40,438 nt of DNA, taken from positions 1 to 40,438 of IMG/VR virus record IMGVR_UViG_3300030399_000042. One strand, given 5' to 3'. The stretch comes from a virus. The position numbers and the translations under genes are program-made. A model generated the notes under the pieces. That model did no database searches and was not told the DNA's origin. It saw only the letters and a program-made list of their open reading frames with translations. Shown piece by piece: positions 8,858 through 21,134 of the stretch (positions are counted from its first letter, which is position 1; each line of letters opens with the position of its first letter).

Positions 8858-9103
8858 TGGAATTTTAACACTAGATGGATATGCCCAATAATCACAACAT
8901 TTGATATCAAATTGAATATCTTCCAATGGATTATCTGTGTAAAAATCTACTGGATAATATTCACCATGATCTATTTTATCAGTGACAAGATTGTGAGCAT
9001 GACAATCAAAGTTAATAATTCCAACGGCCTTGTCTGAAGTATTAATAACAAGAATATTTGCTCCTACGATAGGCATTTTATCTTCAAATCTATGCCATTT
9101 CAT
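8852..9103 (-). CDS. DUF551-like protein
   Basis: I choose the ATG at 9103, which overlaps the preceding stop (ATGA), over a GTG at 9115. The product (83 aa) starts MKWHRFEDKMPIVGANILVI, the W...EDk.P..g..vLv opening typical of DUF551, and ends with CDYWAYPSSVKIPK where family members usually have THWMPLP. DUF551 proteins are small phage/prophage proteins of unknown function. Three further relatives occur at 30667, 31128 and 31328. It is the last gene of the leftward operon from 10870. Confidence 0.6.
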   Translation of the reverse strand: MKWHRFEDKMPIVGANILVINTSDKAVGIINFDCHAHNLVTDKIDHGEYYPVDFYTDNPLEDIQFDIKCCDYWAYPSSVKIPK

Positions 9104-10149
9104 ATATGTTTCCACGTTTTTTTATTTATTATATTCATTACAGCTTCTTTTTTTAATCCAAAAATTTTCATTAACTCATCGATTGAGTATATATCTTCAT
9201 AATAAAATTCTCTCAAAGATAAAACATCGCAATTCTTTAATCTTGTAAAATGTGATAATTCTCCTTTTGGCACGTTTTCATAACGTTTACATCCACATGA
9301 TGAAGTTTTAAATTCATTTCCATTCATTCTTTTGATTTTTTTTTTACATATACATGTAAGCTCTAAATACAAATGTTTTTTTTTAAAACCGACTATACCA
9401 CTAATTTTTAAATATTTATATTTAATACCTATTTTTTTGTGTGCTTTTGAAATTATTAAACTTCTTTTATCACAACCACAAGAAAAATTATTATTCTTTA
9501 TTTCACTGGCACTTCTAGAAAATTCTTTTCCGCATTCACATAACAAATTCCATAAACTGTCACCTTTCCTTTCCAGAAAAGTTATCATTCCAATTTTTTT
9601 CCCGGGATAATTCCCTTTAATACAATTTTTGCACCACTTACGAGAAGATGAAATGCAAGATTTTGTTATTGAAAACTCATAATTACATACAATGCATCTA
9701 ACTATTAACTTTGTCTTATTTTTAATACCGTTAATATCCAAAACTTCCAAATTTTGATATGTTTTTCCTATATGATATTTTGTTTTTTTTCTTAAAGAAC
9801 ATCGTTGGCAACCTGGTTTTTTTATTGCATAAAATTGCCTTTTAGAAATCTTACCACATTTACATTCGCATACATATTTATTACGTTTAGAATTATAATC
9901 TATTTCTATAACCTTACGATCGCAAAATATATCACCGATATTACATAAGGGAACAAACCTAGTTTTTCTTGGATATTTGCTAATACATTGCTTACAACAT
10001 TTATTTTTAATGGGGGCGTCTTTATCTTTTAATATTCCGCAACTACATTGGCATATATATGGCCTACGTCTTCCGTGAATAATATCTTTGACAATCCAAT
10101 CATTAATCTTATCGCCAATTTTATATTTACTTGGAGTGCTCATCTTCAA
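9100..10149 (-). CDS. Five-module zinc-binding array with C-terminal HTH
   Basis: 349 aa. Five repeats of about 50 residues, each opening 'IG....N/F/Y..I/V..I' and carrying paired cysteines: C33/35/37 + C52/55; C94/96/98 + C114/117; C152/155 + C173/176; C204/206 + C224/226; C266/268 + C285/287. The last ~50 residues (SIDELMKIFGLKKEAVMNII then NKKTWKHI) form the helix-turn-helix tail found at the ends of many phage homing-type HNH endonucleases. No HNH, GIY-YIG or LAGLIDADG motif is present. The nearby HNH protein (11016-11666) has one copy of the same N-terminal module. I infer a sequence-specific DNA-binding protein built from homing-endonuclease parts; a cryptic nuclease is possible. Its start overlaps the ParB-like gene by 23 nt. 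Confidence 0.7.
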   Translation of the reverse strand: MKMSTPSKYKIGDKINDWIVKDIIHGRRRPYICQCSCGILKDKDAPIKNKCCKQCISKYPRKTRFVPLCNIGDIFCDRKVIEIDYNSKRNKYVCECKCGKISKRQFYAIKKPGCQRCSLRKKTKYHIGKTYQNLEVLDINGIKNKTKLIVRCIVCNYEFSITKSCISSSRKWCKNCIKGNYPGKKIGMITFLERKGDSLWNLLCECGKEFSRSASEIKNNNFSCGCDKRSLIISKAHKKIGIKYKYLKISGIVGFKKKHLYLELTCICKKKIKRMNGNEFKTSSCGCKRYENVPKGELSHFTRLKNCDVLSLREFYYEDIYSIDELMKIFGLKKEAVMNIINKKTWKHI

Positions 10150-10870
10150 TCCTATTATGATTTTTAAAGTTATAGATTGAGATGAGAAGTGAATACCAAT
10201 CTTCGGATGTTCTTTGAGGTTTTAAATCAAACCATCTAAGATCAAGTTTCTTGAAAAATAATGCTGAATCGAATCCAGTCGTTTTTAAAAGCCAACGTAA
10301 AGCCCGTGTAAAGTTATGATTTGTAAACATGCTATGTGGTTTGATTCTTTTGTCTTTGGTATAGGAAACAAAATCGAAGAAAAAACACATCACATTTTCT
10401 GAATCGTGATTTTGAGGAAATTTAAACTTACCTGTTTTTAAGAATTCCAATATATTAGAACTTACCACTCCTAGAATTAGGGTTAAAAGCGCTTTAGGCT
10501 TCAATCCAGAGGATTTCAACATATCCTTAAGCTGAATATACTCAACCTTCTTTTCTTTCACTGCAAAGTAATTTATATAGTTTTCGACTTCAAAAGACTT
10601 TTGGTTGACATTGCAATCAATAAGGTGATCTTCAGCCACAACATCAGATTTTATATAGAATATTTCACATGCAAGTTCTTTGGCAGCTTGTAATCTATGT
10701 TGTCCGTCTATCACTTCAAAGTTTTGATTCACTATAATTGGATGTAAATTGAGATGATTACTTTTTTCGATAGATTGCTTTAATTTCTTCAAATGATATT
10801 TATCAATAGGCCTATTACCACTCAATATGTTAAATATATTGTAATCATTTGTTTTTTGAACTTGTTCCAT
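10127..10870 (-). CDS. ParB/sulfiredoxin-fold protein
   Basis: 247 aa. The N-terminal ~70 residues show the ParB-like pattern: NRPIDKYHLKKLKQSI followed by HPIIVNQNFEVIDGQHRLQA. The DGQHR motif at residues 55-59 is the nucleotide-binding/catalytic signature of this fold. The remaining ~170 residues are helical and aromatic-rich and match no domain I know. AAAAAAGGA lies upstream of the ATG, and a good sigma70-like promoter lies at 10900-10929. Phage ParB-like proteins act as CTPase regulators or nucleases; which applies here is open. First gene of a three-gene leftward operon. Confidence 0.75.
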   Translation of the reverse strand: MEQVQKTNDYNIFNILSGNRPIDKYHLKKLKQSIEKSNHLNLHPIIVNQNFEVIDGQHRLQAAKELACEIFYIKSDVVAEDHLIDCNVNQKSFEVENYINYFAVKEKKVEYIQLKDMLKSSGLKPKALLTLILGVVSSNILEFLKTGKFKFPQNHDSENVMCFFFDFVSYTKDKRIKPHSMFTNHNFTRALRWLLKTTGFDSALFFKKLDLRWFDLKPQRTSEDWYSLLISIYNFKNHNRIEDEHSK

Positions 10871-11015: not shown

Positions 11016-11666
11016 TTAAACATCCTCTAACTGTAGATATAAGTTATAAATAAACTCTATCCCTTTTCTTTCCTCAACTTTTCTGAATTTATCCCTATTC
11101 ATTCCTAGAACTTCCATTAAATGTGTGTTCTTAATCTTCTTACCGTTTATTTCGTGAAAACGCACAGAACGCCGATTATTCGCCTGCGTTTTAATATCAG
11201 TCCATCTGCAATTTTCTTTGCAGTAGTTGCCGTCATTATCAATTCTATCTAATTGCATGCCGTCAGGTCTTTCTCCCATATCTTTAAGAAAAACATCAAA
11301 TTCATTCCATTCAACACAAACAGAGATTCCTCTTCCACCATAGTTATGGTAATTGACATCATTAGGATCATTGCATCTTTGTCGCATTGCAACCCATATA
11401 GCATATATTCTATCTCTTCCCTTTGTTCTAGATGCCATACCATGTTTATAGGCCCAATGATCTTTGCCTTTCTTGGTATGTGCTTTAGCAGAACAGCATT
11501 TACATGGATTATTTCTAGTTCTCAAATAAGAACCGTTCAGAACAACAATATCACCACAATCACATTGAACTTTGTACATAATGTAACCATTTTTTCTTTC
11601 TGCAAGTTCTTTTACTACAGTTCTTGTTCCGAAACGGGAACCGATTTCAATTTTTTTAATATACAT
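11016..11666 (-). CDS. HNH-type (homing-like) endonuclease
   Basis: 216 aa. The N-terminal zinc-binding module (IGSRFGTRTVVKELA with C35, C37, C55, C57) equals one module of the neighbouring array protein. The middle (YAIWVAMRQRCNDPN, YHNYGGRGISVCVEW) and nuclease core (LDRIDNDGNYCKENCRW and QANNRR, residues ~139-166) form a signature common in free-standing phage HNH proteins. The classic first His is replaced by LD, as is frequent in this subfamily. The C-terminus carries a putative DNA-binding helix. AAAGGA precedes the ATG. It lies 200 bp from the intron-containing capsid gene on the opposite strand, suggesting a role in homing near the capsid locus. Confidence 0.8.
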   Translation of the reverse strand: MYIKKIEIGSRFGTRTVVKELAERKNGYIMYKVQCDCGDIVVLNGSYLRTRNNPCKCCSAKAHTKKGKDHWAYKHGMASRTKGRDRIYAIWVAMRQRCNDPNDVNYHNYGGRGISVCVEWNEFDVFLKDMGERPDGMQLDRIDNDGNYCKENCRWTDIKTQANNRRSVRFHEINGKKIKNTHLMEVLGMNRDKFRKVEERKGIEFIYNLYLQLEDV

Positions 11667-11868: not shown

Positions 11869-13048
11869 ATGAGTATAACAACAACAGGCCAGTTAGGACC
11901 AATGATCCTACAGTCTCTTGCTCCTGCTATGCTTTACGTGCCTACACCAATGATGAACTATAAATAGATGTAGTTATAAAACCGTCGCTGATTGACTCGG
12001 AAGCCCGACAGGGTAACGAGGGGCAAGTTTAAATACAGCCTGAACGACTGAGCGCGATGGGCTCGAAAGAGTATGCAACAGTCTGAACCGTAAAAATAAA
12101 TAAAATTACGGAGGAGAATCCGAAGAGGTTTTCCCGCTTATAATATATTGTAAGTCATAAAGTAACAGAAAGATTACGGTATGTGATAAAATATCCATGC
12201 CTCCAAATGGTGGAACAACAGCACGTTTTATGCGTCCAAGAGCACTAACACCCCCAACGGTTCAACTTGGTAATTCAGGCATTGATCCGCCTGCGCAAGT
12301 ACCTCAAAGGGACATAATCGATGCGCAAATGGCTTTTTTTGGAACAGGCTGTATTATAAACGAACAAGTAATACTGCAAGATCAAGAAGGCGTTTTGGCA
12401 TGGGTGTCAGAGCGTTTAGCAGTAGCGATGCGCCAAGCAGAGGATTTGATTTTACGGGACTATATTGTTTCCGCAGCATCAGAAATTAACGCTGGTGGTG
12501 GTTCTAATGGCGACAATCCAACAAACTTAGGTTTGTCAGATTTCTCATTAGTAGCTACTACACTTGATACTAACAATGCCTACAAGTTTATGACAGGTAT
12601 TGAAGGTATGGATAGATTCGGTACAGGTCCAGTAAGAAGCTCATATTTTATGTTGTCTTCTACTGAACTACAAACCGATTTTGATAGTTTAGTTGGTCAA
12701 GGTGTTTTGAACAACTGGAACTATCCAACAAATTCCTCTGCATTGCCTTCTGAGTGGGGTTCCGTGTTTAATACACGTATCCTAACAAGCTCTGAAGCTC
12801 CAGTTGCTAGAGGTGTTAGTGCTAACGGTCAAGACGTTTATTACAACACTGTGTTGGGTAAACAAGGGATCACACACATTAACCAAGATGGATTCTCAAT
12901 GAATCTAATTTACCGTGACCCATACTACAGTGGTATGTTGGCCCAAAATGCCACTCTTGCTGTTAAGTTTGCTCAAGCGCAAGCCCTAACACAAGATACA
13001 GCTATCAGAAACCTTTTATGTACTCGTTTGAGTTCATTAAACTACTAG
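11869..13048 (+). CDS. Major capsid protein, split by a group I intron
   Basis: Join 11869-11961 and 12179-13048, 320 aa after splicing. Exon 1 encodes MSITTTGQLGPMILQSLAPA followed by MLYVPTPMMNY, then hits a stop (aaa tag) if unspliced. Exon 2 continues VCDKISMPPNGGTTARFM and RPRALTPPTVQLGNSG. The N-terminal TTTGQL...P, the MP.NGGTT.R.RR segment and INEQVILQDQEGVLAWVSER with LRDYI are recognisable parts of a widespread podovirus coat family. The exon 1 start has AAGAGG at 11855. A separate start at ATG 12197 would lack a ribosome site and lose the conserved N-terminus, so splicing is strongly preferred. The coat protein assembles the icosahedral shell with the scaffold at 7773. Confidence 0.85.
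11962..12178 (+). ncRNA. Group I self-splicing intron in the capsid gene
   Basis: 217 nt, no ORF. P1: exon AACUAU (11956-11961) pairs with GUAGUU (11970-11975), putting the required U-G wobble at the 5' splice site. P3: CCGUCGC (11982-11988) with GCGAUGG (12054-12060). P7: GACUG (12046-12050) with CAGUC (12079-12083). P8: CUC-GAAA-GAG (12062-12071). P9: CCGUAA (12088-12093) with UUACGG (12106-12111). CUCG/CGAG (11996-11999/12017-12020) and GGC/GCC (12022-12024/12038-12040) fit the P4-P6 region. The intron ends in G at 12178. The 3' exon GUAUGU can pair with five of six bases upstream of the P1 guide (P10). Splicing restores one continuous frame. Confidence 0.85.
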
Positions 13049-13058
13049 GAGATTTCTC

Positions 13059-14210
13059 ATGGCTGAATATTCAAGATTAGCAACAGGTATGGTAACATCA
13101 ACGGGTGGAAACACTGCTGTTGTATTGCCTTTTATTCCTGATTTTATTGAGATTTACAACTCGACGCGTGCAACGGCAGCTTCTGGCGTAACACGTGCTT
13201 GGTGGACATCTAATATGGGCGAAGGAGCTGCATTTTTAACAACTACTGGCGCAGGTCCAGCGGATGGAACAAGTTTTGTGACTGCAACAACAGGAACAGG
13301 ATTTTCAACATTCCGTGCTGCATTAGCTTTGCAATATGGTCCAACTGTATTGCTTGGTGCTTCTGGTGGTATAACTAAGAATGCCGGAGCTCCGGTTATT
13401 ACAACAACTGCTGCCCATGGTCTAGTTCCAGGTAATGTAGTAGTATTTTCGAACCTTTATGAAACCACTACTACAGGTATGCAACAAATTGCTGGTATTC
13501 CTTTCGTAGTTGTAACGGTTCCAAGTACAACAACATTTACAATTAACTGGGATACAAGCGGTACTAATTACACTGCTATTGCAACTGGTGGTTTGAATAC
13601 TAATGCTTCATTTAAGAAAGTATTGTATCCATTCCTTTACGCACCAAGTGCGACATATATTAGCGGTTTGGCTGCTGGTTCAGGTGTATTTTCTAATGCA
13701 ACTGTAGTTACAACAACTGCTCCGCATAATTTCAAAATTGGTCAAGAAGTAGGATTTCATATCCCTGCTATTTGGGGTCCAGTTCAGTTAAATGAATTGC
13801 CAAATCTGGTTAGACCAGGTTCACCAATCTATCATTATGTACGTGCAGTAACTGAGACAACATTTACTATTGATGTGGTATTTTCAACACTTACAGCTTA
13901 CGTGGCTAATCAGCCATTTGGAAGCTTTATAGGTCAGAAATTCCCTGTCGTTGTACCTGCTGGAGACGTTAACACTGGTGGAGATCAGATCTTCGCTAAT
14001 TCTGTGTTGTATCCTTCACCGCAACTGTACAATGGTTTTAGTAATGCCCTTACTTCAACTATTAATGGTCCTGCGATTCAGGGTGCATTTGTGAATAATA
14101 CTTTAATGGGATTTGTAATAGGTGCTGCTGCCGCTGGAACAGCTGCGGACACCATTTATTGGAGAGCCCAGATGAGTGATATTGTGTTACCTGTAACACA
14201 GTACAGATAG
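13059..14210 (+). CDS. Virion structural protein with two beta modules
   Basis: 383 aa, starting MAEYSRLATGMVTSTGGNTA. Rich in Thr, Ala, Gly and Val, typical of a beta-sheet virion protein. It contains two copies of a module seen in several neighbours: PVITTTAAHGLVPGNVVVFS ending in TTFTINW, and TVVTTTAPHNFKIGQEVGF ending in TTFTIDVVFS. It is translated with the capsid gene (stop, ggagatttctc, start). Candidates are a head decoration, head-tail connector or tail protein. The mix of 'IPDFIEIYNSTRA' and an outer-shell-like composition favours a virion surface role. No enzyme motif is seen. Confidence 0.7.
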   Translation: MAEYSRLATGMVTSTGGNTAVVLPFIPDFIEIYNSTRATAASGVTRAWWTSNMGEGAAFLTTTGAGPADGTSFVTATTGTGFSTFRAALALQYGPTVLLGASGGITKNAGAPVITTTAAHGLVPGNVVVFSNLYETTTTGMQQIAGIPFVVVTVPSTTTFTINWDTSGTNYTAIATGGLNTNASFKKVLYPFLYAPSATYISGLAAGSGVFSNATVVTTTAPHNFKIGQEVGFHIPAIWGPVQLNELPNLVRPGSPIYHYVRAVTETTFTIDVVFSTLTAYVANQPFGSFIGQKFPVVVPAGDVNTGGDQIFANSVLYPSPQLYNGFSNALTSTINGPAIQGAFVNNTLMGFVIGAAAAGTAADTIYWRAQMSDIVLPVTQYR

Positions 14211-17849: not shown

Positions 17850-20800
17850 ATGGGTCAAAAAATAGTTGTAGGTCCTTTTAATGATAAAGGTTTTAGAAAT
17901 GACGTTACCCCATTTAACGTTGATAATACCTCTTTTCCTTCTTTAGTTAATGCTTATCAATGGCGTGGACGCGTCAAACGTAAACGTGGAACTTCTCTTC
18001 TAGGCAGGTTAACACGATTTTTTAGTTCTCTTGTTCCTTCTCTTAATACTGGTATTACTACTATTACATTAGATGGAAGTGGAAACGGAAATTTAATCAC
18101 GGGATTCAATCTGAATTCTACCCTTCCGAATGTTACAATCGCACCAGGAAATACCACTATAACAGGAACGTTGATATATGAAGATCCCAATAAAGATGGG
18201 ACTTTAGAAGTATCTGCTGTAATCACAGGAATTACATTAGGTAACCCAACGGTATTAACAGCAGTTAATACATTTTCATCAGGTGATTCAGTACTAATAA
18301 CAGCTGTCCAAGGTACTGTAGAACTTAATAATAATATCTATACGATAATATCAGTGACAGGAACTACAATAACTATAGATGTAGACTCTACTACATTTAC
18401 AGCATATGATATGGGTGGTTTTGCTACAGATCTAGTTCCAGAAGGAACGATTAATTATGTGACTGGAGCGATTAATATACCTGCACAAGCGGGATTGGCC
18501 GTTTCCGCATCCTTTAACTATTATCCACTACTTCCTGCAATGGGAGAAAGAGATCTTCAATTATTACCAACGCAGTTTCCAGGAACAATAGCATTTGATA
18601 TAACGAAAGCCTATAATGTTGTAACAGCTATTCCATATCCAAATTACAATATAAGTTTTTATAAAAATCCCGCAGCAAATGTTGATCTTTATCCAGGATA
18701 CACACCCAAGACCAATGCAACACCAGTACAATGGAACGGACAAAACTACCAGCAATTTTGGACGACTAATTACGAAAATGCCTTCTGGGCTACTAATGGC
18801 ATTCCTATACCTTTTAATATTACTAATATTGGCATGCAATTTACGTTAGTTACTGGAGCAACAATTGTTGCTGCCGGACCTCCTGCAATTGTGACAATAG
18901 CAATTGCTGCAAGTCCTGCTGTAGTTGGTGATTTCGTCTTTATAAACGAAGTTGTGGGAATAACAGGAATAAACTTCCAGACTGGATATGTAATATCAAT
19001 TGTTGCAGGTGTTAGCATTACAGTAGAGTTTCCTAATGCAACGATAGCTGGTACTTATGGAGGCGGTGGAATAGTCCAGTACTTAACAAATAATGTTGAT
19101 CCAACTAAGGATTGTTTAAGATGGTACGATGGCGATCCAACAGATGGAGTAGTAAATAATCCCGTGCCAACTCCTGGATTCGGTTGGGTTAACTTTTGTC
19201 CTCCATTGTCGCAAGATTTCTATCCCATAGCAGATTTGCCAGCAGCGAAATACTATTTGGTTAATGCTCGCATGATTGTTCCCTTTAAAGACCGTTTGTT
19301 GTTCCTTGGTGCCGTTGTTCAGAGCTCAGGAGGCACACCCATCTATCTTCAAGATACAATTGTTTACAGTCAAAATGGCACGCCTTATTACAACGTTTCT
19401 TTTTCTGCTACACCAAACTATCCGTTACCACCAGTTACCACACCTCCAGGTTATGTAACAATGTTAGCTCCACAACAACAAACGGCCACACCTTCAGCTT
19501 TCTTTGAAGATCAAACAGGATTTGGAGGTTTTGTATCGGCAGGATTGCCTCAACCCATAACAACGTCAGCCCCTAACCAAGATGTGTTAATCGTAGGATT
19601 TTCCAGCCTAAAAACTAAATTGGTATATAGTGGGAATGATTTAGTACCTTTCAATTTCTTTATCATTAACTCAGAACTGGGTGATGCAAGCACATTCTCA
19701 ACTATTACACTTGATAAAGGCGTATTATCCCGTGGAACGCGTGGATATACAATGACAGGTCAAACAGACTCCCAGCGTATAGATCTTGATATTCCAGATC
19801 AAGTTTTCCAAATGAATCTAACAAACAACGGAAACGAAAGATTTTGTGCTTCAAGAGATTTCATCAACGAGTGGATTTATTTTACTTATAACGCGAACAA
19901 TGAAAATGATGAAACTCCAACTGCCATTTTCCCAAATCAAACATTACTTTATAACTATAGAGATAATTCTTGGGCGTTATTTAATGAATCTTATACGAGT
20001 TACGGAGCATTTAGAAGACAAACAGGTTTTACATGGCAAACTGTAGGATTGGTTTATAATACATGGGAAGCGTGGAACGATCCTTGGAATGCGGGTAATT
20101 CAACTGTTCTTCAACAAGAAGTTATCGGTGGAAATTCGCAGGGATTTCTAATATTCCGTGATGAAGGAACAGATGAAGCTGAGTCTCTAGCTATTATTTC
20201 ATTTAATGGTACAACAAATACCGTAACAGTTCCAAATCATAATCTAACAGAAGATAGTTACATACAAATCACTGGATGCTTAGGAACTGTTGGTAATTTC
20301 GTTAACAATGCAATATTTTCTGTATTTAATGTGACTCAGAACACGTTTCAACTTGATCCAGACCCAATGCTTGGATCAGCAACTTATATCGGTGGAGGGT
20401 TAATCACATTAATATATGTTCCATTCATTCAATCTAAGCAATTCCCTCTTGCATGGGATACAGGACGTAAAACTCGTATTGGAGTTCAACAATATCTATT
20501 AACTACTACACCTAGATCAGAAATTACACTACAGATGTTTTTGAGTCAGGATGCAGCTAATCCGTATAACAATCCTCCAATTGTTCCTAGTACATCATCA
20601 ACAAATAACTCATTACTTTACTCACAGGTACTTTATACTTGTCCAGAAAGTACAAATTTAGGTCTGACGCCATTTAATGCTAGCCAGATGATGATAAATG
20701 ATCCTAGTAGTGGTACAAGTCCTCAAGAACAAATATGGCATCGAATTAATACATCCCTGATAGGTGATACCGTTCAAGTCGGACTAACAATGTCAGATGA

Positions 20801-21134
20801 ACAAATTAGGTATTTACATCCATCTTCGATTGTTTCTCCAATAACAGGGATTACATTAGGTAATCCAACTATAATAATGACAACGGCCAATTCAACAGTT
20901 CAACAGCAAGTCAGAATCGAAGGTGTTGTCGGTACGGTTCAATTGAATGGAAATAACTATCATGTGATTGCATCGGATTCCACTACAGTAACGATTAATG
21001 TAGATTCTTCAATGGGATATGAACCATATATTTCAGGTGGTAGAATAGCTGAAGTTGATGCACTCAATGCTTTTGCAGAGATTGAACTACATGGTATCAT
21101 AATGGATTGCTCAACCTCATCACTACTGGTCTAA
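17850..21134 (+). CDS. Tail tubular protein B-like nozzle (T7 gp12-like)
   Basis: 1094 aa, the largest product. The N-terminus (GPFNDKGFRNDVTPFNVDNT, FPSLVNAYQWRGRVKRKRGT) is typical of podovirus nozzle proteins. The core has many beta strands and the characteristic DKGVLSRGTRGYTMTG and NEWIYFTYNANNEND segments. Four copies of the shared ~70-residue module are inserted: near 18219-18425, 18838-19082, 20185-20410 and 20836-21050. The first and last retain the near-identical opening PxITGITLGNPT. In T7 this protein forms the hexameric tail tip that DNA passes through; the modules likely decorate its outside. Confidence 0.75.
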   Translation: MGQKIVVGPFNDKGFRNDVTPFNVDNTSFPSLVNAYQWRGRVKRKRGTSLLGRLTRFFSSLVPSLNTGITTITLDGSGNGNLITGFNLNSTLPNVTIAPGNTTITGTLIYEDPNKDGTLEVSAVITGITLGNPTVLTAVNTFSSGDSVLITAVQGTVELNNNIYTIISVTGTTITIDVDSTTFTAYDMGGFATDLVPEGTINYVTGAINIPAQAGLAVSASFNYYPLLPAMGERDLQLLPTQFPGTIAFDITKAYNVVTAIPYPNYNISFYKNPAANVDLYPGYTPKTNATPVQWNGQNYQQFWTTNYENAFWATNGIPIPFNITNIGMQFTLVTGATIVAAGPPAIVTIAIAASPAVVGDFVFINEVVGITGINFQTGYVISIVAGVSITVEFPNATIAGTYGGGGIVQYLTNNVDPTKDCLRWYDGDPTDGVVNNPVPTPGFGWVNFCPPLSQDFYPIADLPAAKYYLVNARMIVPFKDRLLFLGAVVQSSGGTPIYLQDTIVYSQNGTPYYNVSFSATPNYPLPPVTTPPGYVTMLAPQQQTATPSAFFEDQTGFGGFVSAGLPQPITTSAPNQDVLIVGFSSLKTKLVYSGNDLVPFNFFIINSELGDASTFSTITLDKGVLSRGTRGYTMTGQTDSQRIDLDIPDQVFQMNLTNNGNERFCASRDFINEWIYFTYNANNENDETPTAIFPNQTLLYNYRDNSWALFNESYTSYGAFRRQTGFTWQTVGLVYNTWEAWNDPWNAGNSTVLQQEVIGGNSQGFLIFRDEGTDEAESLAIISFNGTTNTVTVPNHNLTEDSYIQITGCLGTVGNFVNNAIFSVFNVTQNTFQLDPDPMLGSATYIGGGLITLIYVPFIQSKQFPLAWDTGRKTRIGVQQYLLTTTPRSEITLQMFLSQDAANPYNNPPIVPSTSSTNNSLLYSQVLYTCPESTNLGLTPFNASQMMINDPSSGTSPQEQIWHRINTSLIGDTVQVGLTMSDEQIRYLHPSSIVSPITGITLGNPTIIMTTANSTVQQQVRIEGVVGTVQLNGNNYHVIASDSTTVTINVDSSMGYEPYISGGRIAEVDALNAFAEIELHGIIMDCSTSSLLV

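What the first reader, a model, noticed from the sequence alone, without database searches (positions are those of the whole stretch)
11869..13048. Group I intron splits the major capsid gene
A 31-codon exon with the expected coat-protein N-terminus ends at TAT (11961) and would stop two codons later. A 217-nt element follows with pairings for P1 (with U-G at the splice site), P3, P7, P8, P9 and a plausible P10, and ends in G. Exact joining 11961/12179 restores the frame into the conserved NGGTT segment. Introns in phage capsid genes are uncommon, and this one has no internal ORF, which is compact for the class.
Basis: partly seen in the sequence, partly recalled or inferred. Interest (0 to 1): 0.8.

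Follow-up and report, generated by a model that had tools for sequence, protein, structure and literature searches.

The report
Self-splicing intron splits phage capsid gene
The main coat-protein gene of this virus of bacteria is interrupted by a small self-splicing RNA element (a group I intron), and the same gene carries related elements at about 25 positions in its uncultivated relatives, so this essential gene looks like a favourite landing ground for a poorly catalogued lineage of mobile introns.

Summary
Exon 1 is 11869-11961, the intron 11962-12172 (211 nt, not 217), exon 2 12173-13048; the spliced protein has 322 aa. Rfam's group I model finds nothing here, though it finds the T4 nrdD intron at 105 bits. 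Comparative evidence is nevertheless decisive: across 13 related introns 97.9% of pairs are standard and 25 of 36 change on both sides, including P1 with an invariant U-G and P7 with its bulge and an invariant G-C. A model built here finds the T4 intron core independently. Such introns are common in this capsid family: insertions in 49 of 138 distinct genes, about 25 positions. An HNH gene lies just upstream (11016-11666, minus strand). Across relatives HNH and early introns co-occur (8 of 11 against 4 of 127, p about 3e-8), HNH type tracks intron site within the window's clade, and a near-identical phage pair shows a co-conversion-like tract. Best reading: a divergent group I intron, probably spread by collaborative homing with the neighbouring HNH endonuclease. 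Splicing and cleavage are not shown directly.

The parts
11869..11961 (+). Exon 1 of the major capsid gene, 31 codons, ends in U (TAT)
   Evidence: Aligns to the N-terminus of intact homologues; differences lie mostly in synonymous codons
11962..12172 (+). Group I intron, 211 nt, no ORF, last base G
   Evidence: Splice sites fixed by intact homologues; covariation
11956..11975 (+). P1: exon AACUAU 11956-11961 pairs with internal guide GUAGUU 11970-11975, U-G at the splice site
   Evidence: 6 bp; 5 of 6 pairs change on both sides across introns, U-G invariant
11982..12060 (+). P3 (11982-11988 with 12054-12060), enclosing P4, P5 and P6
   Evidence: 6 of 7 P3 pairs change on both sides; also in the unconstrained fold
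12044..12084 (+). P7: A12044-U12084, bulged C12045, G12046-C12083, 12047-12050 with 12079-12082; P8 at 12061-12072
   Evidence: P7 100% paired, four pairs with double changes, G-C invariant; P8
12088..12155 (+). P9 (12088-12111), P9.1 (12113-12134), P9.2 (12136-12155)
   Evidence: Unconstrained fold; not tested by covariation
12173..13048 (+). Exon 2 of the major capsid gene
   Evidence: PHROG 1357 major head protein, E 1.7e-10 for the spliced protein; about 90% identical to relatives
11016..11666 (-). Free-standing HNH endonuclease gene, 216 aa, divergent from the capsid gene; proposed mobility partner
   Evidence: PHROG 374, E 1.3e-57; co-occurs with early introns; site-matched tree

Best explanation
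[quoted passage not shown] It folds into a standard core (P1, P3-P8), uses an internal guide to pair with the end of exon 1, and splices at U11961 and G12172 to restore a 322-aa major capsid protein. It is probably mobile: the HNH enzyme encoded about 200 bp upstream would cut intronless capsid genes near the insertion site, and repair from this genome would copy the HNH gene, exon 1, the intron and the start of exon 2 together (collaborative homing). Shown by comparison: the fold, the splice positions, coding constraint on exon 1, HNH co-occurrence and site-matching, a recombination-like tract in a relative. Inferred: actual splicing, cleavage by HNH, homing. My confidence is about 0.97 for the intron and about 0.65 for collaborative homing; the figure below is for the whole statement.
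For: Homologues fix both splice sites. Covariation in P1, P3-P8 with 0 of 500 shuffles as good. Model R1 finds introns outside its training set and the T4 nrdD intron core at E 0.0054, inside the Rfam hit. HNH x early intron: 8 of 11 against 4 of 127, p 2.8e-8. HNH proteins group by intron site within the window's clade while the introns are scattered on the capsid tree. L008 against L012: divergent tract over exon 1 and the first 120 nt of exon 2, then 93-100% identity.
Against: No RNA data and no biochemistry. Rfam negative. HNH occurs without an early intron in L275, L301 and L327, and early introns without HNH in L054, L205, L303 and L307, of which L303 and L307 seem to carry their own endonuclease. 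Phylogenetically independent pairs agree 5 to 0 in the window's clade but are too few for significance. The HNH target site is unknown and its structure search was uninformative.
Confidence: 0.75

Rival explanations
1. The group I intron is real, but the HNH gene is an independent free-standing homing gene that merely sits beside it; it spreads alone (intronless homing) and the intron is carried along or inherited vertically.
For: HNH genes of this family are widespread in other phages; L275 has HNH and no intron; HNH genes near structural genes are common in phages (PMC10448857).
Against: In the window's clade every HNH-bearing genome has an early intron (5 of 5 against 2 of 76), and HNH type matches the intron site; introns are not clustered on the capsid tree.
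Confidence: 0.25
2. The intron once carried its own endonuclease gene, lost it, and a free-standing HNH later took the neighbouring place (endonuclease turnover).
For: Proposed for such loci in PMC10448857; relatives have intron-borne LAGLIDADG genes at other sites.
Against: No remnant ORF in the window intron; short introns at sites 10, 22, 27, 29 and 31 are ORF-less in both clades. It concerns origin and does not exclude present homing with HNH.
Confidence: 0.2
3. No splicing: exon 1 is a relic and the capsid protein starts at the ATG at 12197.
For: An ORF of 283 aa starts there.
Against: All 61 intact homologues in the set carry the N-terminal segment in frame; exon 1 changes mostly in synonymous codons.
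Confidence: 0.02
4. The insert is an intein or is skipped by translational bypassing.
For: The downstream frame stays open.
Against: There is an in-frame stop two codons into the insert, it is only 211 nt, and it is a covarying ribozyme core.
Confidence: 0.01

Closest known systems
Group I catalytic introns (Rfam RF00028; T4 nrdD intron used as control)
   Same: P1, P3-P8 core, U-G at the 5' site, G at the 3' end, P7 with bulge and G-C pair
   Different: RF00028 does not detect this lineage though it scores T4 nrdD at 105 bits; no P2, and only 3 nt between P7 and P3
Capsid-gene introns of mycobacteriophage LittleE (PMC3706429) and crAss-like phages (PMC7886860)
   Same: Self-splicing introns in a major capsid gene; in one crAss-like genome the gene is split into five fragments
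   Different: LittleE and the crAss-like cases carry endonuclease domains within the introns; here the intron is ORF-less with HNH outside, in a 40-kb phage with a P22-type portal
Collaborative (trans) homing: cyanophage psbA with F-CphI, T3/T7-like phages, ICP1 terL (PMC3984707, PMC10448857)
   Same: ORF-less group I intron with a free-standing endonuclease gene beside exon 1
   Different: Here in a capsid gene, at several sites with site-matched HNH types; cleavage untested

Membership tests
Group I intron | P1 with U-G at the 5' splice site | tested here: met
   U-G in 12 of 12 distinct rows, other pairs covary
Group I intron | P3-P8 core with P7 pseudoknot, bulge and G-C pair at the guanosine-site position | tested here: met
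   equating the pair with the Tetrahymena guanosine site is from general knowledge
Group I intron | Terminal G and exact restoration of the host gene | tested here: met
   G12172; gap-free alignment to intact homologues
Group I intron | Match to Rfam RF00028 | tested here: not met
   No match up to E 10. This is a detection model rather than a structural criterion; R1 finds the T4 nrdD intron
Group I intron | GTP-dependent self-splicing | not testable with these tools
   Needs RNA
HNH homing endonuclease | HNH-family sequence | tested here: met
   PHROG 374, E 1.3e-57; no Pfam or NCBIfam match
Collaborative homing pair | Free-standing endonuclease gene beside an ORF-less intron, inherited with it | tested here: met
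   exceptions exist in both directions
Collaborative homing pair | Co-conversion of flanking exon sequence | tested here: met
   One pair only, L008 against L012, not the window itself
Collaborative homing pair | Endonuclease cuts the intronless site and not the intron-bearing one | not testable with these tools
   Needs a cleavage assay

The most novel reading that the evidence does not exclude
A lineage of group I introns that public models miss has radiated mainly within one gene, the major capsid gene of a family of uncultivated podovirus-like phages, occupying about 25 positions and using exchangeable mobility partners: site-matched free-standing HNH genes for introns near the start, intron-borne LAGLIDADG genes further in.
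Probability: 0.55. Interest if true: 0.72.

Novelty: new variant of a known kind. Interest (0 to 1): 0.6.

Why it matters
Group I introns and capsid-gene introns are known, but one essential late gene hit at about 25 positions, by introns that the standard model does not see, gives a natural series for studying how introns choose sites, exchange mobility partners and spread between phages. It also means that capsid genes of this family are mis-called by automatic annotation (start at 12197 here) and that intron-bearing phages are under-counted.

Tried and rejected
Rfam at gathering score and at E up to 10 on the window, and at E up to 1 on relatives: no group I hit. A second intron in the window: none found by R1, and the portal 5' end looked uninterrupted. 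Named phage relatives: no tblastn match in 50,697 phage records. HNH structure search: weak model, no significant match; no PDB sequence match. A broad HNH search mostly returned HNH genes of other phages, plus five intron-bearing capsid loci. Host: seven hits in scattered MAG contigs, no safe call. An alignment of whole introns without trimming was poor outside the core and was replaced by the core alignment.

Full report
What is there. Exon 1 (11869-11961) encodes 31 residues and runs into a stop two codons later. The capsid ORF that a gene finder would list starts at 12197. Searching IMG/VR with the downstream protein returned 80 relatives; a spliced protein joining 11961 to 12173 aligns end to end without gaps to most of them. 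The intron is therefore 11962-12172, 211 nt. Exon 1 is coding: against intact genes, base differences fall in synonymous codons 1126 times and in non-synonymous codons 305 times, and the ratio reverses out of frame.

Is it a group I intron? Rfam's model gives nothing, even at E 10 on a 351-base query, while the same tool scores the T4 nrdD intron at 105 bits. Relatives decide the matter. Introns with the same core occur in other capsid genes and in portal genes. In 13 of them, a hand-written structure of P1, P3, P4, P5, P6, P7 and P8 is 97.9% paired; 25 of 36 pairs change on both sides; no shuffle of 500 reaches any of the five measures; sliding the partners by 1-3 columns drops pairing to 38-45%. 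P1 keeps U-G at the splice site in 12 of 12 distinct rows while its other pairs change with the exon. P7, with its bulge and an invariant G-C pair, is 100% paired with four double changes; equating that pair with the guanosine-binding site rests on general knowledge of group I introns. The unconstrained fold recovers P1, P3-P6, P8 and P9-P9.2 (z -2.6). A covariance model of the core (R1) finds introns it was not built from (L117, L205, L312) and the T4 nrdD intron at E 0.0054, inside the Rfam match.

How common. In a non-redundant set of 138 complete capsid genes drawn by capsid similarity alone, 49 carry at least one insertion: 20 of 81 in the window's clade, 29 of 57 in a second clade about 43% identical in protein. 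By my count, 35 of those 49 loci have an R1 match at E 0.01 or better; the rest are inferred from broken but otherwise intact capsid frames. The draw for the window's clade ranked by match score and so is, if anything, biased against interrupted genes. Requiring U at the end of exon 1, G at the end of the intron, P1 pairing and protein continuity gave about 25 distinct positions, several shared by both clades (codons 10, 31, 70), and some genes hold several introns. Where two introns lie close together (codons 88-105), the automatic boundaries fail because a short exon lies between them, so the count of positions is approximate. Longer inserts carry LAGLIDADG genes.

Mobility. The window has an HNH gene on the other strand just upstream of exon 1 (11016-11666; PHROG 374, E 1.3e-57). 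In the set of 138, HNH at this place goes with an intron in the first 41 codons: 8 of 11 genomes with HNH against 4 of 127 without (p 2.8e-8); in the window's clade 5 of 5 against 2 of 76. Both traits are scattered on the capsid tree, with 8 changes for early introns and 7 for HNH in the window's clade. Pairs on independent branches agree 5 to 0 but are too few for significance. Within that clade, HNH proteins group by the intron's site rather than by capsid relationship: codon 31 (window, L019, L093), codon 29 (L005, L008); in the second clade the match of HNH to site is not clear. L008 and L012 are nearly identical downstream; L008 has HNH and intron, L012 neither. Exon 1 is 77% identical at the DNA level with identical protein, the first 120 bases of exon 2 are 77-80%, then identity rises to 93-100% for several hundred bases. 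That is what co-conversion around a repaired break would leave, though ordinary recombination could also do it.

Interpretation. The intron is established by comparison as firmly as sequence allows; splicing itself is inferred. Collaborative homing is the best explanation for the HNH pairing, by analogy with the psbA/F-CphI, T3/T7-like and ICP1 terL cases (PMC3984707, PMC10448857), but cleavage is untested and there are exceptions in both directions. Capsid-gene introns have precedents (PMC3706429, PMC7886860), so the kind is known; the lineage missed by Rfam, the many sites and the site-matched partners make it a variant worth following.

Noticed in passing
L082 2438-2554, L083 4133-4247, L087 10976-11092, L089 3852-3966: Introns of the same family interrupt the start of the portal gene in related phages; L082 and L083 have an HNH_3-type gene just upstream.
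   Followed up: partly
L094 5540-5662 and 7381-7508; L086 8395-8517: The same intron core occurs in a long, tape-measure-like gene in much larger viral records (204 kb and 134 kb), twice in L094.
   Followed up: no
9100-10870, minus strand: Two further genes sit between the scaffold-like region and the capsid gene: an HNH-like 349-aa ORF and a ParB-like 247-aa ORF; homologues of the latter lie upstream of the capsid gene in L005, L006, L041 and L051.
   Followed up: partly
L163, L136: Second-clade capsid genes with at least four R1 matches each, i.e. probably four or more introns in one gene.
   Followed up: partly
L337, L341: Two of seven capsid relatives found in genome contigs come from MAGs labelled Chlamydiia or Parachlamydiaceae; binning of phage contigs is unreliable, so this is only a hint at hosts.
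   Followed up: no
13059-14210 and 17850-21134: Both ORFs match the E1_FCCH domain model, the first only below its curated cut-off.
   Followed up: no
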